Below are positions 1 to 64,000 of a DNA stretch of 64,000 nucleotides, piece by piece. This DNA comes from Ulva prolifera. Taxonomy: Eukaryota > Chlorophyta > Ulvophyceae > Ulvales > Ulvaceae. Positions within the stretch are counted from its first letter, which is position 1; each line of letters begins with the position of its first letter. A program made the position numbers and the translations under genes. The notes under the pieces were generated by a model. It was given only the letters and a program-made list of their open reading frames with translations, made no database searches and was not told where the DNA came from. Location of the stretch: the NCBI GenBank assembly GCA_023078555.1, contig CM041199.1:10837943-10901942 (forward strand), in the 5' to 3' direction.

Positions 1-299
1 CGCGCACCATAGGGAAGTTGCCAGAAACATCCTTTGATTCTGAAAGATCTAGGACGTCAAGTATGCATTGCACAGTTGTTGCTAACTACTAGGAGTGGCG
101 TGGAACAAAAGTGCACACTTTTCACCAACCATGTGAATGGACTTGGTTGTAGCCACGCAACCCCCCGCGCAGCAAAAGGTACGTCGCCATCAACATTCCA
201 AGATTTTGGGGGGTATGGGATGTCCATCATTCATTGCGTATTTTCTGCAGACACCATGGCGTGGTGTGGTGCAAAAGTGCACACTTTCCACCAACCCAT

Positions 300-466
300 G
301 TGAATGGACTTGGTTGTAGCCACGCAACCCCCCGCGCAGCAAAAGGTACATCGCGATCAACATTCCAAGATGTTGGGGGGTATGGGATGTCCATCATTCA
401 TTGCGTATTTTCTGCAGACACCATGGCGTGGTGTGGTGCAAAAGTGCACATTTTCCACCAACCCAT
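300..466. repeat. Reference copy of class A with three dyads
   Basis: 167-bp A monomer. Perfect inverted repeats can be read at 358-375 (CAACAT-TCCAAG-ATGTTG), in the segment starting acacca near 418 (ACACCA-TGGCG-TGGTGT), and just beyond it (AAAGTG-CA-CACWTT, where this copy has an acatttt variant). The first two dyads are present in most A monomers. Confidence 0.8.
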
Positions 467-1299
467 GTGAATGGACTTGGTTGTACCCACGCACCCCCTG
501 CGCATCAAAAGGTACGTCGCCATCAACATTCCAAGATGTTGGGGGTATGGGATGTCCATCATTCATTGCGTATTTTCTGCAGACACCATGGAGTGGTGTG
601 GTGCAAAAGTGCACACTTTCCACCAACCCATGTGAATGGACTTGGTTGTAGCCACGCAACCCCCCGCGCATCAAAAGGTACGTCCCCATGAACATTCAAA
701 GATGTTGGGGGGTATGGGATGTCCATCGTCCATTGCGTATTTTCTGCAGACACCATGGAGTGGTGTGGTGCAAAAGTGCACACTTTCCACCAACCCATGT
801 GAATGGACTTGGTTGTAGCCACGCAACCCCCCGCGCATCAAAAGGTACGTCCCCATGAACATTCAAAGATGTTGGGGGGTATGGGATGTCCATCATCCAT
901 TGCGTATTTTCTGCAGACACCATGGAGTGGTGTGGTGCAAAAGTGCACACTTTCCACCAACCCATGTGAATGGATTTGGTTGTAGCCACGCAACCCCCCG
1001 CGCATCAAAAGGTACGTCCCCATGAACATCCAAAGATGTTGGGGGGTATGGGATGTCCATCATCCATTGCGTATTTTCTGCAGACACCATGGAGTGGTGT
1101 GGTGCAAAAGTGCACACTTTCCACCAACCCATGTGAATGGACTTGGTTGTAGCCACGCAACCCCCCGCGCAGCAAAAGGTACGTCGCCATCAACATTCCA
1201 AGATTTTGGGGGGTATGGGATGTCCATCATTCATTGCGTATTTTCTGCAGACACCATGGAGTGGTGTAATGCAAAAGTGCACACTTTCCACCAACCCAT

Positions 1300-1631
1300 G
1301 TGAACGGACTTGGTTGCAGCCACGCAACCCCCCGCACATCAAAGGTACGACTACATGAACATTCCAAGATGTTGGGGGGTATGGGATGTCCATCATTCAT
1401 TGCGTATTTTCTGCAGACACCATGGAGTGGTGTAATGCAAAAGTGCACACTTTCCACCAACCCATGTGAACGGACTTGGTTGCAGCCACGCAACCCCCCG
1501 CACATCAAAGGTACGACTACATGAACATTCCAAGATGTTGGGGGGCATGGGATGTCCATCATTCATTGCGTATTTTCTGCAGACACCATGGAGTGGTGTG
1601 GTGCAAAAGTGCACACTTTCCACCAACCCAT
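1300..1631. repeat. D run, 2 monomers
   Basis: Both with centre gactac; the second has gcatggg and returns to gtgtggtg. D differs from A by gtgaacgg, gttgcagcc, ccgcacatcaaagg (one A fewer) and gtgtaatg. Confidence 0.9.
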
Positions 1632-2299
1632 GTGAATGGACTTGGTTGTAGCCACGCAACCCCCCGCGCATCAAAAGGTACGTCGACATGAACATTCAAA
1701 GATGTTGGGGGGTATGGGATGTCCATCATTTATTGCGTATTTTCTGCAGACACCATGGCGTGGTGTGGTGCAAAAGTGCACACTTTCCACCAACCCATGT
1801 GAATGGACTTGGTTGTAGCCACGCAACCCCCCGCGCATCAAAAGGTACGTCGCCATGAACATTCAAAGATGTTGGGGGGTATGAGATGTCCATCATTCAT
1901 TGCGTATTTTCTGCAGACACCATGGAGTGGTGTGGTGCAAAAATGCACACTTTCCACCAACCCATGTGAATGGACTTGGTTGTAGCCACGCAACCCCCCG
2001 CGCAGCAAAAGGTACGTTGCCATCAACATTCCAAGATGTTGGGGGGTATGGGATGTCCATCATTCATTGCGTATTTTCTGCAGACACCATGGCGTGGTGT
2101 GGTGCAAAAGTGTACACTTTCCACCAACCCATGTGAATGGACTTGGTTGTAGCCACGCAACCCCCCGCGCATCAAAAGGTACATCGCCATCAACATTTTA
2201 AGATGTTGGGGGGTATGGGATGTCCATCATTCATTGCGTATTTTCTGCAGACACCATGGAGTGGTGTGGTGCAAAAGTGCACACTTTCCACCAACCCAT

Positions 2300-2465
2300 G
2301 TGAATGGACTTGGTTGTAGCCACGCAACCCCCCGCGCATCAAAAGGTACGTCGCCATGAACATTCCAAGATGTTGGGGGGTATGGGATGATTATCATTCA
2401 TTGCATATTTGCTGCTGACTCCTAGGAGTGGCGTGGGGCAAAAGTGCACACTTTTCACCAACCAT
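2300..2465. repeat. Reference copy of class B
   Basis: 166 bp. The left half is as in A (gtagccacgcaacc, atgaacattccaag); from gggatgattatc on it diverges from A and resembles X (gctgctgactcc, ggagtggcgtgg, cacttttcaccaacc). Contains ATGAT-T-ATCAT, ACTCCTAGGAGT, AAAAGTG-CA-CACTTTT and TTCAC-CAACCAT-GTGAA. Confidence 0.88.
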
Positions 2466-2631
2466 GTGAATGGACTTGGTTGTAGCCACGCAACCCCCCG
2501 CGCATCAAAAGGTACGTCGCCATGAACATTCCAAGATGTTGGAGGGTATGGGATGATTATCATTCATTGCATATTTGCTGCTGACTCCCAGGAGTGGCGT
2601 GGGGTAAAAGTGCACACTTTTCACCAACCTT

Positions 2632-2796
2632 GTGAATGGACTTGGCTATAGACAAGCATACCCCCGCGCACCATAGGGAAGTTGCCAGAAACATCCTTTG
2701 ATTCTGAAAGATCTAGGACGTCAAGTATGCATTGCACAGTTGTTGCTAACTCCCAAGAGTGGCGTGGAACAAAAGTGCACACTTTTCACCAACCAT
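2632..2796. repeat. Reference copy of the X anchor monomer
   Basis: First complete X, 165 bp. The left half aligns only loosely with A (shared gtgaatggacttgg and cccccgcgca, then catagggaagttgccag and the BglII/AatII-bearing agatctaggacgtc). The right half (ctaactcc, ggagtggcgtgg, cacttttcaccaacc) is B-like. AGATCT was seen only in X, so it marks block boundaries. Confidence 0.9.
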
Positions 2797-3129
2797 GTGA
2801 ATGGACTTGGTTGTAGCCACGCAACCCCCCGCGCAGCAAAAGGTACGTTGCCATCAACATTCCAAGATGTTGGGGGGTATGGGATGTCCATCATTCATTG
2901 CGTATTTTCTGCAGACACCATGGAGTGGTGTGGTGCAAAAGTGTACACTTTCCACCAACCCATGTGAATGGACTTGGTTGTAGCCACGCAACCCCCCGCG
3001 CATCAAAGGGTACATCGCCATCAACATTTTAAGATGTTGGGGGGTATGGGATGATTATCATTCATTGCATATTTGCTGCTGACTCCCAGGAGTGGCGTGG
3101 GGCAAAAGTGCACACTTTTCACCAACCTT
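2632..3129. repeat. Block 2: X-A-B hybrid (3 monomers)
   Basis: X with ctcccaagag, one A (gttgcc, gtgtacac), and a B (2964-3129) whose left half is the catcgcc/attttaag type of A, with the private variant catcaaaggg. The same three-monomer block recurs as block 7. Confidence 0.88.
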
Positions 3130-3461
3130 GTGAATGGACTTGGCTATAGACAAGCATACCCCCGCGCACCATAGGGAAGTTGCCAGAAACATCCTTTGAT
3201 TCTGAAAGATCTAGGACGTCAAGTATGCATTGCACAGTTGTTGCTAACTCCCAGGAGTGGCGTGGAACAAAAGTGCACACTTTTCACCAACCATGTGAAT
3301 GGACTTGGTTGTAGCCACGCAACCCCCCGCGCAGCAAAAGGTACGTTGCCATCAACATTCAGAGATGTTGGGGGGTATGAGATGTCCATCATTCATTGCG
3401 TATTTTCTGCAGACACCATGGAGTGGTGTAATGCAAAAGTGCACACTTTCCACCAACCCAT

Positions 3462-3793
3462 GTGAACGGACTTGGTTGCAGCCACGCAACCCCCCGCACA
3501 TCAAAGGTACGACTACATGAACATTCCAAGATGTTGGGGGGTATGGGATGTCCATCATTCATTGCGTATTTTCTGCAGACACCATGGAGTGGTGTAATGC
3601 AAAAGTGCACACTTTCCACCAACCCATGTGAACGGACTTGGTTGCAGCCACGCAACCCCCCGCACATCAAAGGTACGACTACATGAACATTCCAAGATGT
3701 TGGGGGGCATGGGATGTCCATCATTCATTGCGTATTTTCTGCAGACACCATGGAGTGGTGTGGTGCAAAAGTGCACACTTTCCACCAACCCAT
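3462..3793. repeat. D run, 2 monomers
   Basis: Same gactac-gactac pair as at 1300, 2,162 bp (13 monomers) downstream of it. Confidence 0.9.
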
Positions 3794-3960
3794 GTGAATG
3801 GACTTGGTTGTAGCCACGCAACCCCCCGCGCATCAAAAGGTACGTCGACATGAACATTCAAAGATGTTGGGGGGTATGGGATGTCCATCATTCATTGCGT
3901 ATTTTCTGCAGACACCATGGAGTGGTGTAATGCAAAAGTGCACACTTTCCACCAACCCAT

Positions 3961-4458
3961 GTGAACGGACTTGGTTGCAGCCACGCAACCCCCCGCACAT
4001 CAAAGGTACGATGACATGAACATTCCAAGATGTTGGGGGGTATGGGATGTCCATCATTCATTGCGTATTTTCTGCAGACACCATGGAGTGGTGTAATGCA
4101 AAAGTGCACACTTTCCACCAACCCATGTGAACGGACTTGGTTGCAGCCACGCAACCCCCCGCACATCAAAGGTACGATAACATGAACATTCCAAGATGTT
4201 GGGGGGTATGGGATGTCCATCATTCATTGCGTATTTTCTGCAGACACCATGGAGTGGTGTAATGCAAAAGTGCACACTTTCCACCAACCCATGTGAACGG
4301 ACTTGGTTGCAGCCACGCAACCCCCCGCACATCAAAGGTACGACTACATGAACATTCCAAGATGTTGGGGGGCATGGGATGTCCATCATTCATTGCGTAT
4401 TTTCTGCAGACACCATGGAGTGGTGTGGTGCAAAAGTGCACACTTTCCACCAACCCAT
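3961..4458. repeat. D run, 3 monomers
   Basis: Centres gatgac, gataac, gactac; the last has gcatggg. gataac is private to this run. Confidence 0.9.
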
Positions 4459-5458
4459 GTGAATGGACTTGGTTGTAGCCACGCAACCCCCCGCGCATCA
4501 AAAGGTACGTCGACATGAACATTCAAAGATGTTGGGGGGTATGGGATGTCCATCATTTATTGCGTATTTTCTGCAGACACCATGGCGTGGTGTGGTGCAA
4601 AAGTGCACACTTTCCACCAACCCATGTGAATGGACTTGGTTGTAGCCACGCAACCCCCCGCGCATCAAAAGGTACGTCGCCATGAACATTCAAAGATGTT
4701 GGGGGGTATGAGCTGTCCATCATTCATTGCGTATTTTCTGCAGACACCATGGAGTGGTGTGGTGCAAAAATGCACACTTTCCACCAACCCATGTGAATGG
4801 ACTTGGTTGTAGCCACGCAACCCCCCGCGCAGCAAAAGGTACGTTGCCATCAACATTCCAAGATGTTGGGGGGTATGGGATGTCCATCATTCATTGCGTA
4901 TTTTCTGCAGACACCATGGCGTGGTGTGGTGCAAAAGTGTACACTTTCCACCAACCCATGTGAATGGACTTGGTTGTAGCCACGCAACCCCCCGCGCATC
5001 AAAAGGTACATCGCCATCAACATTTTAAGATGTTGGGGGGTATGGGATGTCCATCATTCATTGCGTATTTTCTGCAGACACCATGGAGTGGTGTGGTGCA
5101 AAAGTGCACACTTTCCACCAACCCATGTGAATGGACTTGGTTGTAGCCACGCAACCCCCCGCGCATCAAAAGGTACGTCGCCATGAACATTCCAAGATGT
5201 TGGGGGGTATGGGATGATTATCATTCATTGCATATTTGCTGCTGACTCCTAGGAGTGGCGTGGGGCAAAAGTGCACACTTTTCACCAACCATGTGAATGG
5301 ACTTGGTTGTAGCCACGCAACCCCCCGCGCATCAAAAGGTACGTCGCCATGAACATTCCAAGATGTTGGAGGGTATGGGATGATTATCATTCATTGCATA
5401 TTTGCTGCTGACTCCCAGGAGTGGCGTGGGGCAAAAGTGCACACTTTTCACCAACCTT

Positions 5459-6788
5459 GTGAATGGACTTGGCTATAGACAAGCATACCCCCGCGCACCA
5501 TAGGGAAGTTGCCAGAAACATCCTTTGATTCTGAAAGATCTAGGACGTCAAGTATGCATTGCACAGTTGTTGCTAACTCCCAGGAGTGGCGTGGAACAAA
5601 AGTGCACACTTTTCACCAACCATGTGAATGGACTTGGTTGTAGCCACGCAACCCCCCGCGCAGCAAAAGGTACGTTGCCATCAACATTCAGAGATGTTGG
5701 GGGGTATGAGATGTCCATCATTCATTGCGTATTTTCTGCAGACACCATGGAGTGGTGTAATGCAAAAGTGCACACTTTCCACCAACCCATGTGAACGGAC
5801 TTGGTTGCAGCCACGCAACCCCCCGCACATCAAAGGTACGACTACATGAACATTCCAAGATGTTGGGGGGTATGGGATGTCCATCATTCATTGCGTATTT
5901 TCTGCAGACACCATGGAGTGGTGTAATGCAAAAGTGCACACTTTCCACCAACCCATGTGAACGGACTTGGTTGCAGCCACGCAACCCCCCGCACATCAAA
6001 GGTACGACTACATGAACATTCCAAGATGTTGGGGGGCATGGGATGTCCATCATTCATTGCGTATTTTCTGCAGACACCATGGAGTGGTGTGGTGCAAAAG
6101 TGCACACTTTCCACCAACCCATGTGAATGGACTTGGTTGTAGCCACGCAACCCCCCGCGCATCAAAAGGTACGTCGACATGAACATTCAAAGATGTTGGG
6201 GGGTATGGGATGTCCATCATTCATTGCGTATTTTCTGCAGACACCATGGAGTGGTGTAATGCAAAAGTGCACACTTTCCACCAACCCATGTGAATGGACT
6301 TGGTTGTAGCCACGCAACCCCCCGCGCATCAAAAGGTACATCGCCATCAACATTCCAAGATGTTGGGGGGTATGGGATGTCCATCATTCATTGCGTATTT
6401 TCTGCAGACACCATGGAGTGGTGTGGTGCAAAAGTGCACACTTTCCACCAACCCATGTGAATGGACTTGGTTGTAGCCACGCAACCCCCCGCGCATCAAA
6501 AGGTACGTCGCCATGAACATTCCAAGATGTTGGGGGGTATGGGATGATTATCATTCATTGCATATTTGCTGCTGACTCCTAGGAGTGGCGTGGGGCAAAA
6601 GTGCACACTTTTCACCAACCATGTGAATGGACTTGGTTGTAGCCACGCAACCCCCCGCGCATCAAAAGGTACGTCGCCATGAACATTCCAAGATGTTGGA
6701 GGGTATGGGATGATTATCATTCATTGCATATTTGCTGCTGACTCCCAGGAGTGGCGTGGGGCAAAAGTGCACACTTTTCACCAACCTT
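5459..6788. repeat. Block 4: X-5 A/D-2 B (8 monomers)
   Basis: Starts like block 3 (cattcagag A, then two D and a gtcgacatgaac A) but goes straight to a catcgcc A and the two B. It can be read as block 3 with six internal monomers removed. Repeated as block 8. Confidence 0.87.
5791..6122. repeat. D run, 2 monomers
   Basis: gactac-gactac pair of block 4. Confidence 0.9.
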
Positions 6789-7619
6789 GTGAATGGACTT
6801 GGCTATAGACAAGCATACCCCCGCGCACCATAGGGAAGTTGCCAGAAACATCCTTTGATTCTGAAAGATCTAGGACGTCAAGTATGCATTGCACAGTTGT
6901 TGCTAACTCCCAAGAGTGGCGTGGAACAAAAGTGCACACTTTTCACCAACCATGTGAATGGACTTGGTTGTAGCCACGCAACCCCCCGCGCAGCAAAAGG
7001 TACGTTGCCATCAACATTCCAAGATGTTGGGGGGTATGGGATGTCCATCATTCATTGCGTATTTTCTGCAGACACCATGGAGTGGTGTGGTGCAAAAGTG
7101 TACACTTTCCACCAACCCATGTGAATGGACTTGGTTGTAGCCACGCAACCCCCCGCGCATCAAAAGGTACATCGCCATCAACATTTTAAGATGTTGGGGG
7201 GTATGGGATGTCCATCATTCATTGCGTATTTTCTGCAGACACCATGGAGTGGTGTGGTGCAAAAGTGCACACTTTCCACCAACCCATGTGAATGGACTTG
7301 GTTGTAGCCACGCAACCCCCCGCGCATCAAAAGGTACGTCGCCATGAACATTCCAAGATGTTAGGGGGTATGGGATGATTATCATTCATTGCATATTTGC
7401 TGCTGACTCCCAGGAGTGGCGTGGGGCAAAAGTGCACACTTTTCACCAACCATGTGAATGGACTTGGTTGTAGCCACGCAACCCCCCGCGCATCAAAAGG
7501 TACGTCGCCATGAACATTCCAAGATGTTGGAGGGTATGGGATGATTATCATTCATTGCATATTTGCTGCTGACTCCCAGGAGTGGCGTGGGGCAAAAGTG
7601 CACACTTTTCACCAACCTT
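6789..7619. repeat. Block 5: X-2 A-2 B (831 bp)
   Basis: X with ctcccaagag, A with gttgcc/gtgtacac, A with catcgcc/attttaag, B with gttagggggtatggg, B with ggaggg. Block 9 is the second copy, differing visibly by gtcgcc in the first A. Confidence 0.87.
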
Positions 7620-9116
7620 GTGAATGGACTTGGCTATAGACAAGCATACCCCCGCGCACTATAGGGAAGTTGCCAGAAACATCCTTTGATTCTGAAAGAT
7701 CTAGGACGTCAAGTATGCATTGCACAGTTGTTGCTAACTCCTAGGAGTGGCGTGGAACAAAAGTGCACACTTTTTACCAACCATGTGAATGGACTTGGTT
7801 GTAGCCACGCAACCCCCCGCGCAGCAAAAGGTACGTCGCCATCAACATTCCAAGATTTTGGGGGGTATGGGATGTCCATCATTCATTGCGTATTTTCTGC
7901 AGACACCATGGCGTGGTGTGGTGCAAAAGTGCACATTTTCCACCAACCCATGTGAATGGACTTGGTTGTACCCACGCACCCCCTGCGCATCAAAAGGTAC
8001 GTCGCCATCAACATTCCAAGATGTTGGGGGTATGGGATGTCCATCATTCATTGCGTATTTTCTGCAGACACCATGGAGTGGTGTGGTGCAAAAGTGCACA
8101 CTTTCCACCAACCCATGTGAATGGATTTGGTTGTAGCCACGCAACCCCCCGCGCATCAAAAGGTACGTCCCCATGAACATCCAAAGATGTTGGGGGGTAT
8201 GGGATGTCCATCATCCATTGCGTATTTTCTGCAGACACCATGGAGTGGTGTGGTGCAAAAGTGCACACTTTCCACCAACCCTTGTGAATGGACTTGGTTG
8301 TAGCCACGCAACCCCCCGCGCAGCAAAAGGTACGTCGCCATCAACATTCCAAGATTTTGGGGGGTATGGGATGTCCATCATTCATTGCGTATTTTCTGCA
8401 GACACCATGGCGTGGTGTGGTGCAAAATTGCACATTTTCCACCAACCCATGTGAATGGACTTGGTTGTAGCCACGCAACCCCCCGCGCAGCAAAAGGTAC
8501 GTTGCCATCAACATTCCAAGATGTTGGGGGGTATGGGATGTCCATCATTCATTGCGTATTTTCTGCAGACACCATGGCGTGGTGTGGTGCAAAAGTGTAC
8601 ACTTTCCACCAACCCATGTGAATGGACTTGGTTGTAGCCACGCAACCCCCCGCGCATCAAAAGGTACATCGCCATCAACATTCCAAGATGTTGGGGGGTA
8701 TGGGATGTCCATCATTCATTGCGTATTTTCTGCAGACACCATGGAGTGGTGTGGTGCAAAAGTGCACACTTTCCACCAACCCATGTGAATGGACTTGGTT
8801 GTAGCCACGCAATCCCCCGCGCATCAAAAGGTACGTCGCCATGAACATTCCAAGATGTTGGGGGGTATGGGATGATTATCATTCATTGCATATTTGCTGC
8901 TGACTCCTAGGAGTGGCGTGGGGCAAAAGTGCACACTTTTCACCAACCATGTGAATGGCCTTGGTTGTAGCCACGCAACCCCCCGCGCATCAAAAGGTAC
9001 GTCGCCATGAACATTCCAAGATGTTGGAGGGTATGGGATGATTATCATTCATTGCATATTTGCTGCTGACTCCCAGGAGTGGCGTGGGGCAAAAGTGCAC
9101 ACTTTTCACCAACCTT
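7620..9116. repeat. Block 6: X-6 A-2 B (9 monomers)
   Basis: The anchor has the private variant gcactatagg and a run of five T in cttttt. The A monomers are: gattttgg type with cacatttt, tacccacgcacccc type with a five-G run, gtcccc type, gattttgg type with gcaaaattgcac, gttgcc type, catcgcc type. The first four recur in block 10. Confidence 0.87.
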
Positions 9117-16927: not shown

Positions 16928-17093
16928 GTGAACGGACTTGGTTGCAGCCACGCAACCCCCCGCACATCAAAGGTACGACTACATGAACATTCCAAGATGT
17001 TGGGGGGCATGGGATGTCCATCATTCATTGCGTATTTTCTGCAGACACCATGGAGTGGTGTGGTGCAAAAGTGCACACTTTCCACCAACCCAT
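16928..17093. repeat. Single D
   Basis: Centre gactac with gcatggg, after an A with cttgcc. Confidence 0.88.
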
Positions 17094-37375: not shown

Positions 37376-38307
37376 GTGAATGGACTTGGCTATAGACAAG
37401 CATACCCCCGCGCACCATAGGGAAGTTGCCAGAAACATCCTTTGATTCTGAAAGATCTAGGACGTCAAGTATGCATTGCACAGTTGTTGCTAACTCCCAG
37501 GAGTGGCGTGGAACAAAAGTGCACACTTTTCACCAACCATGTGAATGGACTTGGTTGTAGCCACGCAACCCCCCGCGCAGCAAAAGGTACGTTGCCATCA
37601 ACATTCCAAGATGTTGGGGGGTATGGGATGTCCATCATTCATTGCGTATTTTCTGAGACACCATTGAGTGGTGTGGATGCAAAGTGTACACTTCCACCAA
37701 CCCATGTGAATGGACTTGGTTGTAGCCACGCAACCACCCGCGCATCAAAGTCATCGCATCAACATTCCCAAGACGTTGGGGGGTATGGGATGTCCATCAT
37801 TCATTGCGTATTTTCTGCAGACACCATGGAGTGGTGGTGGTGCAAAAGTGCACACTGTTCCACCAACCCATGTGAAAATGGACGTTGGTTGTATCCACGC
37901 AACCCCCCGCGCATCAAAAGGTACGTCGCCAGGGAACATTCCAAGATGTTAGGGGTATGGGATGATTATCATTCATTGCATATGGTTGTTGCCACGCAAC
38001 CCCCCGCGCATCAAAAGGTACATCGCCATCAACATTCCAAGATGTGGGGGGTATGGGATGGTCCATCATTCATTGCGTATTTTCTGCAGACACCATGGAG
38101 TGGTGTAATGCAAAGTTGCACACTTTCCTTCCACCACCCATGTAAATGGTACTTGGTGTAGCCACGCAACGCCCGCAGCATGAAAGGTACGTCGCCATGA
38201 ACATTCCAATATGTTGGGGGGTATGGGATGATTATCATTCATTGCAATATTTGCTGCTGACTCCCAGGAGTGGCGTGGGGCAAAAGTGCACACTTTTCAC
38301 CAACCTT
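37376..38307. repeat. Block 32: X-2 A-truncated B-A-B (damaged, about 5.6 monomers)
   Basis: Left part resembles cassette K1 (caagacgttgggg, gttaggggtatggg). A B is cut after gattatcattcattgcat near 37,981 and joined directly to an A at tggttgttgccacg. That A and the following B carry the ttgttgcc and catgtaaatgg variants of block 27. Many one-base indels: ttctgagacacc, gtggatgcaaagtg, gtgaaaatggacgttgg, aaagttgcac. Confidence 0.85.
37660..38265. other. Indel-rich patch 1
   Basis: Many one- to three-base gains and losses relative to the class sequences, within block 32. It coincides with the truncated-B junction. Confidence 0.85.
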
Positions 38308-49101: not shown

Positions 49102-49932
49102 GTGAATGGACTTGGCTATAGACAAGCATACCCCCGCGCACCATAGGGAAGTTGCCAGAAACATCCTTTGATTCTGAAAGATCTAGGACGTCAAGTATGC
49201 ATTGCACAGTTGTTGCTAACTCCTAGGAGTGGCGTGGAACAAAAGTGCACACTTTTCACCAACCATGTGAATGGACTTGGTTGTAGCCACGCAACCCCCC
49301 GCGCAGCAAAAGGTACGTCGCCATCAACATTCCAAGATGTTGGGGGGTATGGGATGTCCATCATTCATTGCGTATTTTCTGCAGACACCATGGAGTGGTG
49401 TGGTGCAAAAGTGTACACTTTCCACCAACCCATGTGAATGGACTTGGTTGTAGCCACGCAACCCCCCGCGCATCAAAAGGTACGTCGCCATGAACATTCC
49501 AAGATGTTGGGGGGTATGGGATGTCCATCATTCATTGCGTATTTTCTGCAGACACCATGGAGTGGTGTGGTGCAAAAGTGCACACTTTCCACCAACCCAT
49601 GTGAATGGACTTGGTTGTAGCCACGCAACCCCCCGCGCATCAAAAGGTACGTCGCCATGAACATTCCAAGATGTTGGGGGTATGGGATGTCCATCATTCA
49701 TTGCGTATTTTCTGCAGACACCATGGCGTGGTGTGGTGCAAAAGTGCACACTTTCCACCAACCCATGTGAATGCACTTGGTTGTAGCCACGCAACCCCCC
49801 GCGCATCAAAAGGTACGTCGCCATGAACATTCAAAGATGTTGGGGGGTATGGGATGTCCATCATTCATTGCGTATTTTCTGCTGACTCCCAGGAGTGGCG
49901 TGGGGCAAAAGTGCACACTTTTCACCAACCTT
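49102..49932. repeat. Block 49: X-3 A-A/B hybrid
   Basis: Clean sequence. Three A (the third with ggcg, followed by gtgaatgcacttgg) and a final monomer (49,767-49,932) that is A up to gcgtattttctgc and B from tgactcccagg. It is the only block whose B right half is joined this far to the right. Confidence 0.87.
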
Positions 49933-50258
49933 GTGAATGGACTTGGCTATAGACAAGCATACCCCCGCGCACCATAGGGAAGTTGCCAGAAACATCCTTT
50001 GATTCTGAAAGATCTAGGACGTCAAGTATGCATTGCCAGTTGTTGCTAACTCCCAAGAGTGGCGTGGAACAAAAGTGCACACTTTTCACCAACCATGTGA
50101 ATGGACTTGGTGAGCCACGCAACCCCCGCGCAGCAAAAGGTACGTCGCCATGAACATTCCAAGATGTTGGGGGGTATGGGATGATATCATCATTGCATAT
50201 TTGCTGCTGACTCCCAGGAGTGGCGTGGGGCAAAAGTGCACAACTTTTCACCAACCAT
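49933..50258. repeat. Block 50: X-B (2 monomers)
   Basis: Same form as blocks 30 and 47. It has several small deletions: cattgccagttg (2 bases), ttggtgagccacgc, gatatcatcattg, and an extra A in gcacaactttt. Confidence 0.84.
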
Positions 50259-52545: not shown

Positions 52546-52726
52546 TTTCCACCAACCCATGTGAATGGACTTGGTTGTAGCCACGCAACCCCCCGCGCAT
52601 CAAAAGGTACGTCGCCATGAACATTCCAAGATGTTGTGGGGTATGGGATGATTATCATTCATTGCATATTTGCTGCTGACTCCCAGGAGTGGCGTGGGGC
52701 AAAAGTGCACACTTTTCACCAACCTT
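52073..52726. repeat. Block 53: X-2 A-B, damaged cassette P
   Basis: Recognised as cassette P by ccgcgaagcaaaag and catagaga. The anchor is eroded (gactggctata, aagctacccc, catccttgattc, gtaggcatgcac), as is the first A (tcatccttgcg, gcaggacacc, gtggaactttcc). The B is nearly intact, with gttgtgggg. Confidence 0.84.
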
Positions 52727-54893
52727 GTGAATGGACTTGGCTATAGACAAGCATACCCCCGCGCACCATAGGGAAGTTGCCAGAAACATCCTTTGATTCT
52801 GAAAGATCTAGGACGTCAAGTATGCATTGCACAGTTGTTGCTAACTCCTAGGAGTGGCGTGGAACAAAAGTGCACACTTTTCACCAACCATGTGAATGGA
52901 CTTGGTTGTAGCCACGCAACCCCCCGCGCAGCAAAAGGTACGTCGCCATCAACATTCCAAGATTTTGGGGGGTATGGGATGTCCATCATTCATTGCGTAT
53001 TTTCTGCAGACACCATGGCGTGGTGTGGTGCAAAAGTGCACATTTTCCACCAACCCATGTGAATGGACTTGGTTGTACCCACGCAACCCCCCGCGCATCA
53101 AAAGGTACGTCCCCATGAACATTCCAAGATGTTGGGGGGTATGGGATGTCCATCATCCATTGCGTATTTTCTGCAGACACCATGGAGTGGTGTGGTGCAA
53201 AAGTGCACACTTTCCACCAACCCATGTGAATGGACTTGGTTGTAGCCACGCAACCCCCCGCGCATCAAAAGGTACGTCGACATGAACATTCCAAGATGTT
53301 GGGGGGTATGGGATGTCCATCATTCATTGCGTATTTTCTGCAGACACCATGGCGTGGTGTGGTGCAAAAGTGCACACTTTCCACCAACCCATGTGAATGC
53401 ACTTGGTTGTAGCCACGCAACCCCCCGCGCATCAAAAGGTACGTCGCCATGAACATTCAAAGATGTTGGGGGGTATGGGATGTCCATCATTCATTGCGTA
53501 TTTTCTGCAGACACCATGGCGTGGTGTGGTGCAAAAGTGCACACTTTCCACCAACCCATGTGAATGCACTTGGTTGTAGCCACGCAACCCCCCGCGCATC
53601 AAAAGGTACGTCGCCATGAACATTCAAAGATGTTGGGGGGTATGGGATGTCCATCATTCATTGCGTATTTTCTGCAGACACCATGGCGTGGTGTGGTGCA
53701 AAAATGCACACTTTCCACCAACCCATGTGAATGGACTTGGTTGTAGCCACGCAACCCCCCGCGCATCAAAAGGTACGTCGCCATGAACATTCAAAGATGT
53801 TGGGGGGTATGAGATGTCCATCATTCATTGCGTATTTTCTGCAGACACCATGGAGTGGTGTGGTGCAAAAATGCACACTTTCCACCAACCCATGTGAATG
53901 GACTTGGTTGTAGCCACGCAACCACCCGCGCAGCAAAAGGTACGTTGCCATCAACATTCCAAGATGTTGGGGGGTATGGGATGTCCATCATTCATTGCGT
54001 ATTTTCTGCAGACACCATGGAGTGGTGTGGTGCAAAAGTGCACACTTTCCACCAACCCATGTGAATGGACTTGGTTGTAGCCACGCAACCCCCCGCGCAT
54101 CAAAAGGTACGTCCCCATGGACATTCAAAGATGTTGGGGGGTATGGGATGTCCATCATCCATTGCGTATTTTCTGCAGACACCATGGAGTGGTGTGGTGC
54201 AAAAATGCACACTTTCCACCAACCCATGTGAATGGACTTGGTTGTAGCCACGCAACCACCCGCGCAGCAAAAGGTACGTTGCCATCAACATTCCAAGATG
54301 TTGGGGGGTATGGGATGTCCATCATTCATTGCGTATTTTCTGCAGACACCATGGCGTGGTGTGGTGCAAAAGTGTACACTTTCCACCAACCCATGTGAAT
54401 GGACTTGGTTGTAGCCACGCAACCCCCCGCGCATCAAAAGGTACATCGCCATCAACATTCCAAGATGTTGGGGGGTATGGGATGTCCATCATTCATTGCG
54501 TATTTTCTGCAGACACCATGGAGTGGTGTGGTGCAAAAGTGCACACTTTCCACCAACCCATGTGAATGGACTTGGTTGTAGCCACGCAACCCCCCGCGCA
54601 TCAAAAGGTACGTCGCCATGAACATTCCAAGATGTTGGGGGGTATGGGATGATTATCATTCATTGCATATTTGCTGCTGACTCCCAGGAGTGGCGTGGGG
54701 CAAAAGTGCACACTTTTCACCAACCATGTGAATGGACTTGGTTGTAGCCACGCAACCCCCCGCGCATCAAAAGGTACGTCGCCATGAACATTCCAAGATG
54801 TTGGAGGGTATGGGATGATTATCATTCATTGCATATTTGCTGCTGACTCCCGGGAGTGGCGTGGGGCAAAAGTGCACACTTTTCACCAACCTT
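52727..54893. repeat. Block 54: X-10 A-2 B (13 monomers)
   Basis: Order: gattttgg A; a hybrid A joining tacccacg to acgtcccc; gtcgac A; two A with gtgaatgcacttgg starts; gagatgtcc A with aaaatgcac; aaccacc/gttgcc A; gtccccatggac A; a second aaccacc/gttgcc A with gtgtacac; catcgcc A; B; B with ctcccgggag. Repeated as block 57. Confidence 0.88.
54846..54857. repeat. Perfect 12-bp palindrome ACTCCCGGGAGT in last B
   Basis: Same site as ACTCCTAGGAGT in other B and X monomers. The CG centre form was seen near 51,040, 54,850, 59,013 and 62,177 only. Confidence 0.85.
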
Positions 54894-55891
54894 GTGAATG
54901 GACTTGGCTATAGACAAGCATACCCCCGCGCACCATAGGGAAGTTGCCAGAAACATCCTTTGATTCTGAAAGATCTAGGACGTCAAGTATGCATTGCACA
55001 GTTGTTGCTAACTCCTAGGAGTGGCGTGGAACAAAAGTGCACACTTTTCACCAACCATGTGAATGGACTTGGTTGTAGCCACGCAACCCCCCGCGCAGCA
55101 AAAGGTACGTCGCCATCAACATTCCAAGATTTTGGGGGGTATGGGATGTCCATCATTCATTGCGTATTTTCTGCAGACACCATGGCGTGGTGTGGTGCAA
55201 AAGTGCACATTTTCCACCAACCCATGTGAATGGACTTGGTTGTACCCACGCACCCCCTGCGCATCAAAAGGTACGTCGCCATCAACATTCCAAGATGTTG
55301 GGGGGTATGGGATGTCCATCATTCATTGCGTATTTTCTGCAGACACCATGGAGTGGTGTGGTGCAAAAGTGCACACTTTCCACCAACCCATGTGAATGGA
55401 CTTGGTTGTAGCCACGCAACCCCCCGCGCATCAAAAGGTACGTCCCCATGAACATTCAAAGATGTTGGGGGGTATGGGATGTCCATCATTCATTGCGTAT
55501 TTTCTGCAGACACCATGGAGTGGTGTGGTGCAAAAGTGCACACTTTCCACCAACCCATGTGAATGGACTTGGTTGTAGCCACGCAACCCCCCGCGCATCA
55601 AAAGGTACGTCCCCATGAACATTCCAAGATGTTGGGGGGTATGGGATGTCCATCATCCATTGCGTATTTTCTGCAGACACCATGGAGTGGTGTGGTGCAA
55701 AAGTGCACACTTTCCACCAACCCATGTGAATGGACTTGGTTGTAGCCACGCAACCCCCCGCGCATCAAAAGGTACGTCGCCATGAACATTCCAAGATGTT
55801 GTGGGGTATGGGATGATTATCATTCATTGCATATTTGCTGCTGACTCCCAGGAGTGGCGTGGGGCAAAAGTGCACACTTTTCACCAACCTT
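54894..55891. repeat. Block 55: X-4 A-1 B (6 monomers)
   Basis: gattttgg A with cacatttt, tacccacgcacccc A, two gtcccc A (the second with catccatt), B with gttgtgggg. The next anchor starts gtgaacggacttggc, a private T-to-C. Copies: blocks 58 and 61. Confidence 0.88.
55011..55022. repeat. Perfect 12-bp palindrome ACTCCTAGGAGT in X
   Basis: Typical X copy. Other centres at this position are CA (imperfect dyad) and CAAG (dyad broken), so the site is a convenient subtype marker. Confidence 0.85.
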
Positions 55892-56890
55892 GTGAACGGA
55901 CTTGGCTATAGACAAGCATACCCCCGCGCACCATAGGGAAGTTGCCAGAAACATCCTTTGATTCTGAAAGATCTAGGACGTCAAGTATGCATTGCACAGT
56001 TGTTGCTAACTCCTAGGAGTGGCGTGGAACAAAAGTGCACACTTTTCACCAACCATGTGAATGGACTTGGTTGTAGCCACGCAACCCCCCGCGCAGCAAA
56101 AGGTACGTTGCCATCAACATTCCAAGATGTTGGGGGGTATGGGATGTCCATCATTCATTGCGTATTTTCTGCAGACACCATGGCGTGGTGTGGTGCAAAA
56201 GTGTACACTTTCCACCAACCCATGTGAATGGACTTGGTTGTAGCCACGCAACCCCCCGCGCATCAAAAGGTACATCGCCATCAACATTCCAAGATGTTGG
56301 GGGGTATGGGATGTCCATCATTCATTGCGTATTTTCTGCAGACACCATGGAGTGGTGTGGTGCAAAAGTGCACACTTTCCACCAACCCATGTGAATGGAC
56401 TTGGTTGTAGCCACGCAACCCCCCGCGCATCAAAAGGTACGTCCCCATGAACATTCAAAGATGTTGGGGGGTATGGGATGTCCATCATTCATTGCGTATT
56501 TTCTGCAGACACCATGGAGTGGTGTGGTGCAAAAGTGCACACTTTCCACCAACCCATGTGAATGGACTTGGTTGTAGCCACGCAACCCCCCGCGCATCAA
56601 AAGGTACGTCCCCATGAACATTCCAAGATGTTGGGGGGTATGGGATGTCCATCATCCATTGCGTATTTTCTGCAGACACCATGGAGTGGTGTGGTGCAAA
56701 AGTGCACACTTTCCACCAACCCATGTGAATGGACTTGGTTGTAGCCACGCAACCCCCCGCGCATCAAAAGGTACGTCGCCATGAACATTCCAAGATGTTG
56801 TGGGGTATGGGATGATTATCATTCATTGCATATTTGCTGCTGACTCCCAGGAGTGGCGTGGGGCAAAAGTGCACACTTTTCACCAACCTT
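55892..56890. repeat. Block 56: X-4 A-1 B (6 monomers)
   Basis: Same second half as block 55 (two gtcccc A and a gttgtgggg B), but the first two A are the gttgcc/gtgtacac and catcgcc types. A recombinant of two block kinds. Confidence 0.87.
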
Positions 56891-59057
56891 GTGAATGGAC
56901 TTGGCTATAGACAAGCATACCCCCGCGCACCATAGGGAAGTTGCCAGAAACATCCTTTGATTCTGAAAGATCTAGGACGTCAAGTATGCATTGCACAGTT
57001 GTTGCTAACTCCTAGGAGTGGCGTGGAACAAAAGTGCACACTTTTCACCAACCATGTGAATGGACTTGGTTGTAGCCACGCAACCCCCCGCGCAGCAAAA
57101 GGTACGTCGCCATCAACATTCCAAGATTTTGGGGGGTATGGGATGTCCATCATTCATTGCGTATTTTCTGCAGACACCATGGCGTGGTGTGGTGCAAAAG
57201 TGCACATTTTCCACCAACCCATGTGAATGGACTTGGTTGTACCCACGCAACCCCCCGCGCATCAAAAGGTACGTCCCCATGAACATTCCAAGATGTTGGG
57301 GGGTATGGGATGTCCATCATCCATTGCGTATTTTCTGCAGACACCATGGAGTGGTGTGGTGCAAAAGTGCACACTTTCCACCAACCCATGTGAATGGACT
57401 TGGTTGTAGCCACGCAACCCCCCGCGCATCAAAAGGTACGTCGACATGAACATTCCAAGATGTTGGGGGGTATGGGATGTCCATCATTCATTGCGTATTT
57501 TCTGCAGACACCATGGCGTGGTGTGGTGCAAAAGTGCACACTTTCCACCAACCCATGTGAATGCACTTGGTTGTAGCCACGCAACCCCCCGCGCATCAAA
57601 AGGTACGTCGCCATGAACATTCAAAGATGTTGGGGGGTATGGGATGTCCATCATTCATTGCGTATTTTCTGCAGACACCATGGCGTGGTGTGGTGCAAAA
57701 GTGCACACTTTCCACCAACCCATGTGAATGCACTTGGTTGTAGCCACGCAACCCCCCGCGCATCAAAAGGTACGTCGCCATGAACATTCAAAGATGTTGG
57801 GGGGTATGGGATGTCCATCATTCATTGCGTATTTTCTGCAGACACCATGGCGTGGTGTGGTGCAAAAATGCACACTTTCCACCAACCCATGTGAATGGAC
57901 TTGGTTGTAGCCACGCAACCCCCCGCGCATCAAAAGGTACGTCGCCATGAACATTCAAAGATGTTGGGGGGTATGAGATGTCCATCATTCATTGCGTATT
58001 TTCTGCAGACACCATGGAGTGGTGTGGTGCAAAAATGCACACTTTCCACCAACCCATGTGAATGGACTTGGTTGTAGCCACGCAACCACCCGCGCAGCAA
58101 AAGGTACGTTGCCATCAACATTCCAAGATGTTGGGGGGTATGGGATGTCCATCATTCATTGCGTATTTTCTGCAGACACCATGGAGTGGTGTGGTGCAAA
58201 AGTGCACACTTTCCACCAACCCATGTGAATGGACTTGGTTGTAGCCACGCAACCCCCCGCGCATCAAAAGGTACGTCCCCATGGACATTCAAAGATGTTG
58301 GGGGGTATGGGATGTCCATCATCCATTGCGTATTTTCTGCAGACACCATGGAGTGGTGTGGTGCAAAAATGCACACTTTCCACCAACCCATGTGAATGGA
58401 CTTGGTTGTAGCCACGCAACCACCCGCGCAGCAAAAGGTACGTTGCCATCAACATTCCAAGATGTTGGGGGGTATGGGATGTCCATCATTCATTGCGTAT
58501 TTTCTGCAGACACCATGGCGTGGTGTGGTGCAAAAGTGTACACTTTCCACCAACCCATGTGAATGGACTTGGTTGTAGCCACGCAACCCCCCGCGCATCA
58601 AAAGGTACATCGCCATCAACATTCCAAGATGTTGGGGGGTATGGGATGTCCATCATTCATTGCGTATTTTCTGCAGACACCATGGAGTGGTGTGGTGCAA
58701 AAGTGCACACTTTCCACCAACCCATGTGAATGGACTTGGTTGTAGCCACGCAACCCCCCGCGCATCAAAAGGTACGTCGCCATGAACATTCCAAGATGTT
58801 GGGGGGTATGGGATGATTATCATTCATTGCATATTTGCTGCTGACTCCCAGGAGTGGCGTGGGGCAAAAGTGCACACTTTTCACCAACCATGTGAATGGA
58901 CTTGGTTGTAGCCACGCAACCCCCCGCGCATCAAAAGGTACGTCGCCATGAACATTCCAAGATGTTGGAGGGTATGGGATGATTATCATTCATTGCATAT
59001 TTGCTGCTGACTCCCGGGAGTGGCGTGGGGCAAAAGTGCACACTTTTCACCAACCTT
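56891..59057. repeat. Block 57: X-10 A-2 B (13 monomers)
   Basis: Copy of block 54 at an offset of 4,164 bp, with the same hybrid second A, aaccacc, atggac and ctcccgggag variants. I see no difference between the two by eye. Confidence 0.88.
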
Positions 59058-60055
59058 GTGAATGGACTTGGCTATAGACAAGCATACCCCCGCGCACCAT
59101 AGGGAAGTTGCCAGAAACATCCTTTGATTCTGAAAGATCTAGGACGTCAAGTATGCATTGCACAGTTGTTGCTAACTCCTAGGAGTGGCGTGGAACAAAA
59201 GTGCACACTTTTCACCAACCATGTGAATGGACTTGGTTGTAGCCACGCAACCCCCCGCGCAGCAAAAGGTACGTCGCCATCAACATTCCAAGATTTTGGG
59301 GGGTATGGGATGTCCATCATTCATTGCGTATTTTCTGCAGACACCATGGCGTGGTGTGGTGCAAAAGTGCACATTTTCCACCAACCCATGTGAATGGACT
59401 TGGTTGTACCCACGCACCCCCTGCGCATCAAAAGGTACGTCGCCATCAACATTCCAAGATGTTGGGGGGTATGGGATGTCCATCATTCATTGCGTATTTT
59501 CTGCAGACACCATGGAGTGGTGTGGTGCAAAAGTGCACACTTTCCACCAACCCATGTGAATGGACTTGGTTGTAGCCACGCAACCCCCCGCGCATCAAAA
59601 GGTACGTCCCCATGAACATTCAAAGATGTTGGGGGGTATGGGATGTCCATCATTCATTGCGTATTTTCTGCAGACACCATGGAGTGGTGTGGTGCAAAAG
59701 TGCACACTTTCCACCAACCCATGTGAATGGACTTGGTTGTAGCCACGCAACCCCCCGCGCATCAAAAGGTACGTCCCCATGAACATTCCAAGATGTTGGG
59801 GGGTATGGGATGTCCATCATCCATTGCGTATTTTCTGCAGACACCATGGAGTGGTGTGGTGCAAAAGTGCACACTTTCCACCAACCCATGTGAATGGACT
59901 TGGTTGTAGCCACGCAACCCCCCGCGCATCAAAAGGTACGTCGCCATGAACATTCCAAGATGTTGTGGGGTATGGGATGATTATCATTCATTGCATATTT
60001 GCTGCTGACTCCCAGGAGTGGCGTGGGGCAAAAGTGCACACTTTTCACCAACCTT
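59058..60055. repeat. Block 58: X-4 A-1 B (6 monomers)
   Basis: Copy of block 55, with the standard gtgaatgg start of the following anchor. Confidence 0.88.
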
Positions 60056-62221
60056 GTGAATGGACTTGGCTATAGACAAGCATACCCCCGCGCACCATAG
60101 GGAAGTTGCCAGAAACATCCTTTGATTCTGAAAGATCTAGGACGTCAAGTATGCATTGCACAGTTGTTGCTAACTCCTAGGAGTGGCGTGGAACAAAAGT
60201 GCACACTTTTCACCAACCATGTGAATGGACTTGGTTGTAGCCACGCAACCCCCCGCGCAGCAAAAGGTACGTCGCCATCAACATTCCAAGATTTTGGGGG
60301 GTATGGGATGTCCATCATTCATTGCGTATTTTCTGCAGACACCATGGCGTGGTGTGGTGCAAAAGTGCACATTTTCCACCAACCCATGTGAATGGACTTG
60401 GTTGTACCCACGCACCCCCTGCGCATCAAAAGGTACGTCGCCATCAACATTCCAAGATGTTGGGGGGTATGGGATGTCCATCATTCATTGCGTATTTTCT
60501 GCAGACACCATGGAGTGGTGTGGTGCAAAAGTGCACACTTTCCACCAACCCATGTGAATGGACTTGGTTGTAGCCACGCAACCCCCCGCGCATCAAAAGG
60601 TACGTCCCCATGAACATTCAAAGATGTTGGGGGGTATGGGATGTCCATCATTCATTGCGTATTTTCTGCAGACACCATGGAGTGGTGTGGTGCAAAAGTG
60701 CACACTTTCCACCAACCCATGTGAATGGACTTGGTTGTAGCCACGCAACCCCCCGCGCATCAAAAGGTACGTCCCCATGAACATTCCAAGATGTTGGGGG
60801 GTATGGGATGTCCATCATCCATTGCGTATTTTCTGCAGACACCATGGAGTGGTGTGGTGCAAAAGTGCACACTTTCCACCAACCCATGTGAATGGACTTG
60901 GTTGTAGCCACGCAACCCCCCGCGCATCAAAAGGTACGTCGACATGAACATTCCAAGATGTTGGGGGGTATGGGATGTCCATCATTCATTGCGTATTTTC
61001 TGCAGACACCATGGCGTGGTGTGGTGCAAAAGTGCACACTTTCCACCAACCCATGTGAATGCACTTGGTTGTAGCCACGCAACCCCCCGCGCATCAAAAG
61101 GTACGTCGCCATGAACATTCAAAGATGTTGGGGGGTATGGGATGTCCATCATTCATTGCGTATTTTCTGCAGACACCATGGCGTGGTGTGGTGCAAAAGT
61201 GCACACTTTCCACCAACCCATGTGAATGCACTTGGTTGTAGCCACGCAACCCCCCGCGCATCAAAAGGTACGTCGCCATGAACATTCAAAGATGTTGGGG
61301 GGTATGGGATGTCCATCATTCATTGCGTATTTTCTGCAGACACCATGGCGTGGTGTGGTGCAAAAATGCACACTTTCCACCAACCCATGTGAATGGACTT
61401 GGTTGTAGCCACGCAACCCCCCGCGCATCAAAAGGTACGTCGCCATGAACATTCAAAGATGTTGGGGGGTATGAGATGTCCATCATTCATTGCGTATTTT
61501 CTGCAGACACCATGGAGTGGTGTGGTGCAAAAATGCACACTTTCCACCAACCCATGTGAATGGACTTGGTTGTAGCCACGCAACCACCCGCGCAGCAAAA
61601 GGTACGTTGCCATCAACATTCCAAGATGTTGGGGGGTATGGGATGTCCATGATTCATTGCGTATTTTCTGCAGACACCATGGCGTGGTGTGGTGCAAAAG
61701 TGTACACTTTCCACCAACCCATGTGAATGGACTTGGTTGTAGCCACGCAACCCCCCGCGCATCAAAAGGTACATCGCCATCAACATTCCAAGATGTTGGG
61801 GGGTATGGGATGTCCATCATTCATTGCGTATTTTCTGCAGACACCATGGAGTGGTGTGGTGCAAAAGTGCACACTTTCCACCAACCCATGTGAATGGACT
61901 TGGTTGTAGCCACGCAACCCCCCGCGCATCAAAAGGTACGTCGCCATGAACATTCCAAGATGTTGGGGGGTATGGGATGATTATCATTCATTGCATATTT
62001 GCTGCTGACTCCCAGGAGTGGCGTGGGGCAAAAGTGCACACTTTTCACCAACCATGTGAATGGACTTGGTTGTAGCCACGCAACCCCCCGCGCATCAAAA
62101 GGTACGTCGCCATGAACATTCCAAGATGTTGGAGGGTATGGGATGATTATCATTCATTGCATATTTGCTGCTGACTCCCGGGAGTGGCGTGGGGCAAAAG
62201 TGCACACTTTTCACCAACCTT
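60056..62221. repeat. Block 59: X-10 A-2 B (13 monomers, recombinant)
   Basis: The front is the block 58 type (gattttgg, tacccacgcacccc, two gtcccc). It continues with the rear of block 57 (gtcgac, two gtgaatgcac, gagatgtcc, aaccacc, catcgcc) and lacks the gtccccatggac A and one aaccacc A. A private catgattcatt near 61,650 replaces catcattcatt. Last B has ctcccgggag. Confidence 0.87.
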
Positions 62222-62886
62222 GTGAATGGACTTGGCTATAGACAAGCATACCCCCGCGCACCATAGGGAAGTTGCCAGAAACATCCTTTGATTCTGAAAG
62301 ATCTAGGACGTCAAGTATGCATTGCACAGTTGTTGCTAACTCCTAGGAGTGGCGTGGAACAAAAGTGCACACTTTTCACCAACCATGTGAATGGACTTGG
62401 TTGTAGCCACGCAACCCCCCGCGCAGCAAAAGGTACGTCGCCATCAACATTCCAAGATGTTGGGGGGTATGGGATGTCCATCATTCATTGCGTATTTTCT
62501 GCAGACACCATGGAGTGGTGTGGTGCAAAAGTGCACACTTTCCACCAACCCATGTGAATGGACTTGGTTGTAGCCACGCAACCCCCCGCGCATCAAAAGG
62601 TACGTCCCCATGGACATTCAAAGATGTTGGGGGGTATGGGATGTCCATCATCCATTGCGTATTTTCTGCAGACACCATGGAGTGGTGTGGTGCAAAAGTG
62701 CACACTTTCCACCAACCCATGTGAATGGACTTGGTTGTAGCCACGCAACCCCCCGCGCATCAAAAGGTACGTCGCCATGAACATTCCAAGATGTTGTGGG
62801 GTATGGGATGATTATCATTCATTGCATATTTGCTGCTGACTCCCAGGAGTGGCGTGGGGCAAAAGTGCACACTTTTCACCAACCTT
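62222..62886. repeat. Block 60: X-2 A-1 B (4 monomers)
   Basis: A with gtcgcc and gatgttgg, A with gtccccatggac and catccatt, B with gttgtgggg. The gtccccatggac monomer links it to the inside of blocks 54 and 57, so it looks like a deleted 13-monomer block. Confidence 0.86.
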
Positions 62887-63884
62887 GTGAATGGACTTGG
62901 CTATAGACAAGCATACCCCCGCGCACCATAGGGAAGTTGCCAGAAACATCCTTTGATTCTGAAAGATCTAGGACGTCAAGTATGCATTGCACAGTTGTTG
63001 CTAACTCCTAGGAGTGGCGTGGAACAAAAGTGCACACTTTTCACCAACCATGTGAATGGACTTGGTTGTAGCCACGCAACCCCCCGCGCAGCAAAAGGTA
63101 CGTCGCCATCAACATTCCAAGATTTTGGGGGGTATGGGATGTCCATCATTCATTGCGTATTTTCTGCAGACACCATGGCGTGGTGTGGTGCAAAAGTGCA
63201 CATTTTCCACCAACCCATGTGAATGGACTTGGTTGTACCCACGCACCCCCTGCGCATCAAAAGGTACGTCGCCATCAACATTCCAAGATGTCGGGGGGTA
63301 TGGGATGTCCATCATTCATTGCGTATTTTCTGCAGACACCATGGAGTGGTGTGGTGCAAAAGTGCACACTTTCCACCAACCCATGTGAATGGACTTGGTT
63401 GTAGCCACGCAACCCCCCGCGCATCAAAAGGTACGTCCCCATGAACATTCAAAGATGTTGGGGGGTATGGGATGTCCATCATTCATTGCGTATTTTCTGC
63501 AGACACCATGGAGTGGTGTGGTGCAAAAGTGCACACTTTCCACCAACCCATGTGAATGGACTTGGTTGTAGCCACGCAACCCCCCGCGCATCAAAAGGTA
63601 CGTCCCCATGAACATTCCAAGATGTTGGGGGGTATGGGATGTCCATCATCCATTGCGTATTTTCTGCAGACACCATGGAGTGGTGTGGTGCAAAAGTGCA
63701 CACTTTCCACCAACCCATGTGAATGGACTTGGTTGTAGCCACGCAACCCCCCGCGCATCAAAAGGTACGTCGCCATGAACATTCCAAGATGTTGTGGGGT
63801 ATGGGATGATTATCATTCATTGCATATTTGCTGCTGACTCCCAGGAGTGGCGTGGGGCAAAAGTGCACACTTTTCACCAACCTT
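62887..63884. repeat. Block 61: X-4 A-1 B (6 monomers)
   Basis: Third copy of the block 55 type, with a private gatgtcggggggt (T to C) near 63,291. Confidence 0.88.
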
Positions 63885-64000
63885 GTGAATGGACTTGGCT
63901 ATAGACAAGCATACCCCCGCGCACCATAGGGAAGTTGCCAGAAACATCCTTTGATTCTGAAAGATCTAGGACGTCAAGTATGCATTGCACAGTTGTTGCT
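63885..64000. repeat. Block 62: partial X at the window end
   Basis: First 116 bases of an anchor, with the usual gaaagatctaggacgtc, cut by the window end. Confidence 0.9.

What the first reader, a model, noticed from the sequence alone, without database searches (positions are those of the whole stretch)
1..64000. A punctuated satellite: every block fits X-(A or D)n-B(1-2)
The array has no single HOR length. A diverged anchor X recurs 62 times at spacings of 2 to 17 monomers, and each X is preceded by a monomer with a B-type right half, without a visible exception. Typical HOR arrays repeat a fixed number of monomers; here the boundary pair B|X is kept while the middle expands and contracts. 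Either B|X is functionally constrained, or exchange takes place almost only inside A runs. The second could follow from A monomers being so alike.
Basis: partly seen in the sequence, partly recalled or inferred. Interest (0 to 1): 0.75.

Follow-up and report, generated by a model that had tools for sequence, protein, structure and literature searches.

The report
Irregular 167-bp satellite repeat array
A million-base tandem repeat on one algal chromosome keeps two of its repeat types side by side, most likely because DNA exchange rarely finds enough matching sequence to separate them, and not because the pair does a job.

Summary
The pattern is real in the window, but the rule is local. The window belongs to a ~1.07-Mb, one-strand, 167-bp satellite array on one contig of a chlorophyll a/b alga.

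After one miscalled monomer was corrected, 61 X have a visible predecessor and 60 follow a B-type right half; 59 of 61 blocks fit the grammar.

Array-wide the rule fails: 67 of 922 exact X cores follow an exact A-type right half. One such joint, X17, has 43 copies within 93 kb. In eight sampled loci, B is followed by A in 20 of 125 cases.

'Half-B' is a phase artefact. B differs from A only over a ~75-bp end. X is a diverged monomer sharing no exact run over 17 bp with A. Simulated unequal exchange needing 20-30 identical bases keeps B|X in 95-100% of X while spacings vary; with no such need it falls to 19-36%. Of 24 in-register A|X joints, 23 fall at the two longest A-X identity runs.

A functional constraint on B|X is not needed. 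260 X cores remain unclassed, and any centromere role is untested.

The parts
1..64000 (+). 167-bp satellite array filling the window (part of a ~1.07-Mb array, C4 ~10,095,528 to between 11,167,904 and 11,180,001)
   Evidence: eight 10-kb samples of C4 are the same satellite; last 3.6 kb of the contig are not
1..91 (+). partial X monomer at the window edge (core at 27)
590..756 (+). example of an A monomer
   Evidence: 0.98 identity to the A consensus
1258..1589 (+). two D monomers (an A subtype)
2258..2590 (+). two B monomers: A-type middle with the B-type end
2591..2755 (+). X monomer following B B; 0.72 identity to A
49725..50055 (+). exception: a monomer that is A except for its last 9 bases, followed by X
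37828..38266 (+). irregular block: B joined to a truncated A (122 bp), then B; probably poor consensus
52686..55850 (+). first copy of a 19-monomer exact repeat (offset 25 monomers)
56850..60014 (+). second copy of that repeat
27..8026 (+). stretch that recurs at C4:10505001-10513000 at 99.975% identity without gaps

Best explanation
This is a non-coding satellite array with an irregular higher-order structure, shaped by unequal homologous exchange and block copying between out-of-step copies. There are three monomer types: A; B, which differs from A only over a ~75-bp end; and X, a diverged monomer. Exchange needs a minimum run of identical sequence. Such runs are plentiful between A and A and between A and the A-like middle of B, so A runs grow and shrink, and B|X groups are copied or lost as units. 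Across the B end and X, A offers at most 17 identical bases, so exchange seldom puts A directly before X. B|X is therefore nearly a conserved quantity of the process. It is broken by rare joints at the longest A-X identity runs or by out-of-register joints such as X17, and these then spread like any other block. Shown here: the types, the counts, the lack of identity, the joints and their copy numbers. Inferred: that homologous exchange is the process and that its working threshold is about 15-30 bp.
For: Identity: A-B 0.922 with a 94-bp exact run; A-X 0.719 with 16-17 bp at most; within the B end A and B share no run over 17 bp. Census of in-register exchange sites in the window: 0.4% of sites with 25 identical bases would put a non-B before X, 3.3% with 8. 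Simulation, 24 runs in each of 24 settings, B|X among X in runs that kept at least 10 X: need 0, 0.19-0.36; 10, 0.61-0.84; 15, 0.73-0.88; 20, 0.95-0.98; 25, 0.97-1.00; 30, 1.00; median distinct spacings 7.5-13 (14 seen in the window). Real joints: of 24 in-register A|X cases, read by eye from the matched strings, 19 lie at the 15-bp run (columns 41-55), 4 at the 17-bp run (columns 13-29) and 1 between; these are the two longest A-X runs. Spread without B: X17 43 copies; 9 copies at 10.160-10.176 Mb and 8 at 10.223-10.231 Mb. Block copying: 25-monomer offset; ~333-kb copy.
Against: 260 of 922 X cores match neither the exact B nor the exact A pattern (595 and 67), so array-wide B|X is only bounded between 64.5% and 92.7%; the exact B pattern also finds only 47 of 59 X cores in the window. 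The 24 in-register joints are few founders (about six by my grouping), and a long identity run catches a random breakpoint more often, so their position is support, not proof. X17 is out of register and is not explained by in-register exchange. 62 of 67 A|X lie in the left 215 kb, which a uniform neutral model does not predict. The simulation starts with B|X in place: it explains keeping, not origin; in it X is more alike than A in only about half to three quarters of the runs that need identity. At 20 bases 61 of 79 kept runs reach 60/61, so not all. Census and first simulation still held one false X of 62. Gene conversion or break-induced replication could give the same picture.
Confidence: 0.83

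Rival explanations
1. B|X is a functional unit (for example a binding site spanning the joint) and selection removes X that lose B.
For: 60 of 61 X in the window and 69 of 72 in eight sampled loci follow B; only 5 of 67 exact A|X joints lie right of 10.31 Mb.
Against: 67 of 922 X cores follow an exact A right end; X17 multiplied to 43 copies and lies in sequence that is not private; B often occurs without X outside the window (20 of 125 followed by A); exchange with an identity need gives the same adjacency without selection.
Confidence: 0.06
2. Exchange is confined to A runs because A monomers are most alike; B and X are bystanders.
For: A runs vary most in number; A-A exchange sites are the most abundant by composition.
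Against: X is the most uniform class and A the least; 25-monomer and ~333-kb copies carry B and X along; B|X joints fall into 16 haplotypes, the commonest 31 times (before the correction).
Confidence: 0.06
3. The order is partly an assembly product (collapsed or duplicated repeats), so block lengths and the ~333-kb copy are not real.
For: Private, indel-rich stretches inside the window; a 99.975% copy ~333 kb away.
Against: 17 of 384 monomers hold over 30% private 31-mers, so most of the window is consistent; X17 copies and in-register A|X joints recur many times.
Confidence: 0.05

Closest known systems
Human alpha-satellite arrays with irregular higher-order repeats (PMC4920115, passages read)
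   Same: monomers of several types whose order is rearranged between neighbouring repeats; that paper classes 58% of alpha-satellite reads as irregular and 23% as regular
   Different: I recall no sequence relation and tested none; three main types, no fixed repeat length in the window; centromere role untested here
Smith's unequal-crossover model of satellites (as summarised in PMC8122249, passages read)
   Same: out-of-register exchange makes and reshapes tandem arrays without selection
   Different: here a minimum identity is added, which makes one type boundary nearly unbreakable
Switchgrass centromere repeats with truncated monomers inside larger units (PMC4053949, passages read)
   Same: ~170-bp monomers, multi-monomer units, monomers of altered length carried along (compare X17 and the 202-bp X)
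   Different: switchgrass variants lie on many chromosomes; this family was seen on one contig
Green-algal centromeres (PMC11005252, PMC8226300; passages read)
   Same: chlorophyll a/b organisms, by light-harvesting genes here
   Different: those centromeres are built of LINE or Copia elements, and the two Chlorella ones are said to lack tandem satellites; nothing here shows that this array is a centromere

Membership tests
satellite DNA with higher-order repeat (HOR) structure | long head-to-tail array of one monomer length | tested here: met
   core word 4126 forward, 0 reverse
satellite DNA with higher-order repeat (HOR) structure | several monomer types in a recurring order | tested here: met
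   59 of 61 blocks fit X-A(n)-B(1-2) in the window
satellite DNA with higher-order repeat (HOR) structure | fixed number of monomers per unit | tested here: not met
   14 X spacings in the window; only local repetition at 25 monomers. Hence irregular, not regular, HOR
centromeric satellite | carries CENH3 chromatin | not testable with these tools
   no ChIP data
centromeric satellite | present on all or most chromosomes | tested here: inconclusive
   core count 4126 in the genome, ~4351 expected from this array alone, so probably only here; other chromosomes could use other DNA
functionally constrained B|X unit | X does not persist or spread without B | tested here: not met
   67 of 922 X cores after an exact A right end, X17 with 43 copies

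The most novel reading that the evidence does not exclude
The array is the working centromere of one chromosome of a green-lineage alga, a satellite centromere in a group whose described centromeres are transposon-based; and its joints give a sequence-only estimate (about 15-30 bp) of the identity that its exchange machinery needs.
Probability: 0.1. Interest if true: 0.6.

Novelty: new member of a known kind. Interest (0 to 1): 0.3.

Why it matters
It shows that a strict-looking grammar in a satellite can follow from the identity requirement of DNA exchange alone, so adjacency rules in centromere-like arrays should be tested against such a null before function is claimed. The joints that break the rule, and their spread, offer a way to estimate the minimum homology for exchange from one assembled array. 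A megabase nucleosome-length satellite on a single contig of an alga also deserves a chromatin test.

Tried and rejected
Shuffling monomers as the null: excludes chance order but ignores block copying, so it is not the argument. First classification: counted a truncated A at 37975 as X; found, corrected. One search miscalled some edge and altered-length monomers of the sampled loci; recounted in a shifted phase, which dropped monomers under 140 bp or with 30 or more gaps (kept: 383 of 385 in the window; 59 of 60 or 60 of 61 per locus, L014-L021). X17 estimated from spacings (34 of 99) included unreliable long spacings; replaced by the pattern count of 43. The first B-before-X pattern had a gap range that missed the normal distance (4 matches); the corrected one gave 595. 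'Both misfits lie in poor patches' was in a draft; one search bears it out for the block at 37828, not for the one at 49725. Search for a protected motif: the two least variable 12-column windows start at columns 44 and 14, the second inside a near-palindrome; by my own estimate, not run, such runs are expected at 72% identity, so no claim. COX1 search found nothing. Papers with '167 bp', 'satellite', 'green alga' and 'centromer' together: none. A search for a Bryopsis genome paper gave only a bacterial announcement. Species left unnamed.
Full report
What is there. The window is C4:10837943-10901942 of an 88.9-Mb genome in 44 contigs and is satellite throughout. Eight 10-kb samples of C4 between 10.10 and 11.16 Mb are the same satellite on the same strand. 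The left edge is abrupt at about C4:10,095,528; the right edge lies between 11,167,904 (a match) and 11,180,001, since the last 3.6 kb of the contig are not satellite. Not every base between was seen. A 24-base core word occurs 4126 times forward and 0 times reverse in the genome (only the first 100 places are listed, all on C4); its density in 144 kb of window and samples predicts about 4351 in this array alone, so the family is probably confined to it.

The organism. The genome has 38 matches to the chlorophyll a/b-binding family. For one of these proteins the best PDB chains by total score are two multi-domain chains of entry 9vfj, which belongs to Euglena gracilis (the paper was seen only as a search listing); the best single-domain match is 7dz7 chain V, and it scores higher than any single domain of 9vfj (330 against 235 bits; that 7dz7 is from Chlamydomonas is recalled). 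I take it as a chlorophyll a/b alga, probably green, and leave the species open.

The observation. I cut the window into 385 monomers by alignment to the A consensus, classed them and corrected one false X after looking at the letters. Of 61 X with a visible predecessor, 60 follow a B-type right half and one follows an A whose last 9 bases are B-type. 59 of 61 blocks fit X-A(n)-B(1-2), and X spacing is 2-17 monomers. The misfit block at 37828-38266 lies in monomers with 58-95% private 31-mers, probably poor consensus. The exception at 49725 has 7% private 31-mers and may be a real recombinant; a private stretch begins at 50056.

What B is. B has an A-type middle and differs only from about column 130 of one monomer to column 37 of the next. 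In the window 91 of 92 B right ends are followed by the matching left end. Cut at another phase, the array reads as three whole types A, B and X; the chimeric look is a matter of phase. Outside the window a few B ends are followed by plain A left ends, so this link too can be broken.

The rule outside the window. In eight samples 69 of 72 X follow B and 3 follow A; B is followed by X 69, by B 36 and by A 20 times of 125. In the whole genome there are 922 exact X cores. 595 follow an exact B right end, 67 follow an exact A right end (complete list) and 260 match neither and were not classed; in the window the exact B pattern finds 47 of 59 X cores and the exact A pattern none. Of the 67, 43 are X17, an A monomer joined 17 bp out of register to X (letters; complete list of 43), within C4:10,216,699-10,309,220. 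The other 24 are in register: 9 at 10.160-10.176 Mb, 8 at 10.223-10.231, 2 at 10.284, 1 at 10.345, and 4 single places further right, two of which are 333,303 bp apart. 62 of 67 lie left of 10.31 Mb. So X without B exists, arose several times and spreads, mostly in the left part of the array.

Why B|X is kept. A and B are 92% identical with a 94-bp exact run; A and X are 72% identical with no exact run over 17 bp; within the B end A and B share no run over 17 bp. Of in-register exchange sites in the window (offsets up to 25 monomers) 0.4% of those with 25 identical bases would put a non-B before X, against 3.3% with 8 (one false X still in, X|X counted as a break). In simulated arrays of about 384 monomers with up to 1500 exchanges, 24 runs in each of 24 settings, only runs with at least 10 X left counted: no identity needed, B|X 0.19-0.36 (68 of 96 runs kept); 10 bases 0.61-0.84 (81); 15 bases 0.73-0.88 (82); 20 bases 0.95-0.98 (79); 25 bases 0.97-1.00 (70); 30 bases 1.00 (83). 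Runs reaching 60/61: 0 of 68, 11 of 81, 27 of 82, 61 of 79, 61 of 70 and 83 of 83. A smaller first run agrees in trend (0.42, 0.66, 0.99, 0.98, 1.00 at 0, 12, 20, 25, 30 bases). Median distinct X spacings in the simulations are 7.5-13; the window has 14. The real joints fit: read by eye from the strings, 19 of 24 in-register A|X joints fall at the 15-bp A-X run (columns 41-55), 4 at the 17-bp run (13-29) and 1 between; these are the two longest A-X identities. They are about six founders by my grouping, so this is support rather than proof.

Turnover is by blocks. X is the most uniform class (median pairwise identity 0.994; B 0.964; A 0.940, with the false X still in), which does not fit exchange in A runs only, although A's spread also reflects its subtypes; in the simulations X is not consistently the more uniform class. 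An offset of 25 monomers gives 14.5% identical monomers, mean over offsets 1.2%, with a 19-monomer exact repeat at 52686-55850 and 56850-60014. Window 27-8026 recurs at C4:10505001-10513000 with 99.975% identity and no gaps. The B|X joints of the window fall into 16 haplotypes, the commonest 31 times (before the correction), so they are far from 60 independent observations.

Comparison. Irregular higher-order structure is common in human alpha satellite (58% of reads in PMC4920115, passages). Satellites shaped by unequal exchange without selection are a classical model (Smith, as summarised in PMC8122249, passages). Truncated monomers inside larger units are described in switchgrass, and low tandem-repeat abundance in small basal-plant genomes including green algae (PMC4053949, passages). 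Described green-algal centromeres are transposon-based (PMC11005252, PMC8226300, passages). One search for a 167-bp green-algal centromeric satellite found no paper in the held library.

Verdict. The pattern is real in the window, broken elsewhere in the array, and expected from identity-limited exchange. It is a known kind of satellite with a clear example of how an adjacency can be kept without function.

Noticed in passing
C4:9800001-10010000 (L010, L011, L012): A 19-bp tandem repeat (GGACATTGACCTCCATTCT) fills nearly all of L011, and a 12-base word of it is as frequent in the 10-kb samples at 9.80 and 10.00 Mb (445-479 copies each); perhaps a ~200-kb minisatellite left of the satellite.
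   Followed up: partly
window 27-8026 and L026 (C4:10505001-10513000): 99.975% identity over 8000 bp about 333 kb apart; other exact X places and two A|X joints show a similar offset. A recent very long duplication or an assembly duplication.
   Followed up: partly
L020 2318-2519 and 4351-4552: X monomers of 202 bp with a 37-bp internal tandem duplication, each after a monomer that is an A/B recombinant within the B right half.
   Followed up: partly
window bins from 37501, 38001, 47501, 48001, 48501, 50001, 51501 and 52001: 500-bp bins with 21-61% private 31-mers (the window as a whole has 4%), probably poorly polished consensus.
   Followed up: partly
C4:10266000-10282000: X17 recurs at a 516-bp spacing, so a new three-monomer unit seems to be spreading there.
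   Followed up: no
L013 (C4:10050001-10060000) 908-1426, minus strand: Open frame with a weak match to the Ulp1 protease family (E 0.0003, just over the cut-off), perhaps part of a transposon between the two repeat arrays.
   Followed up: no
monomer columns 15-30: Near-palindrome AAAAGTG-CA-CACTTT(T): 7-bp arms in the B and X left ends, one base short in A.
   Followed up: no
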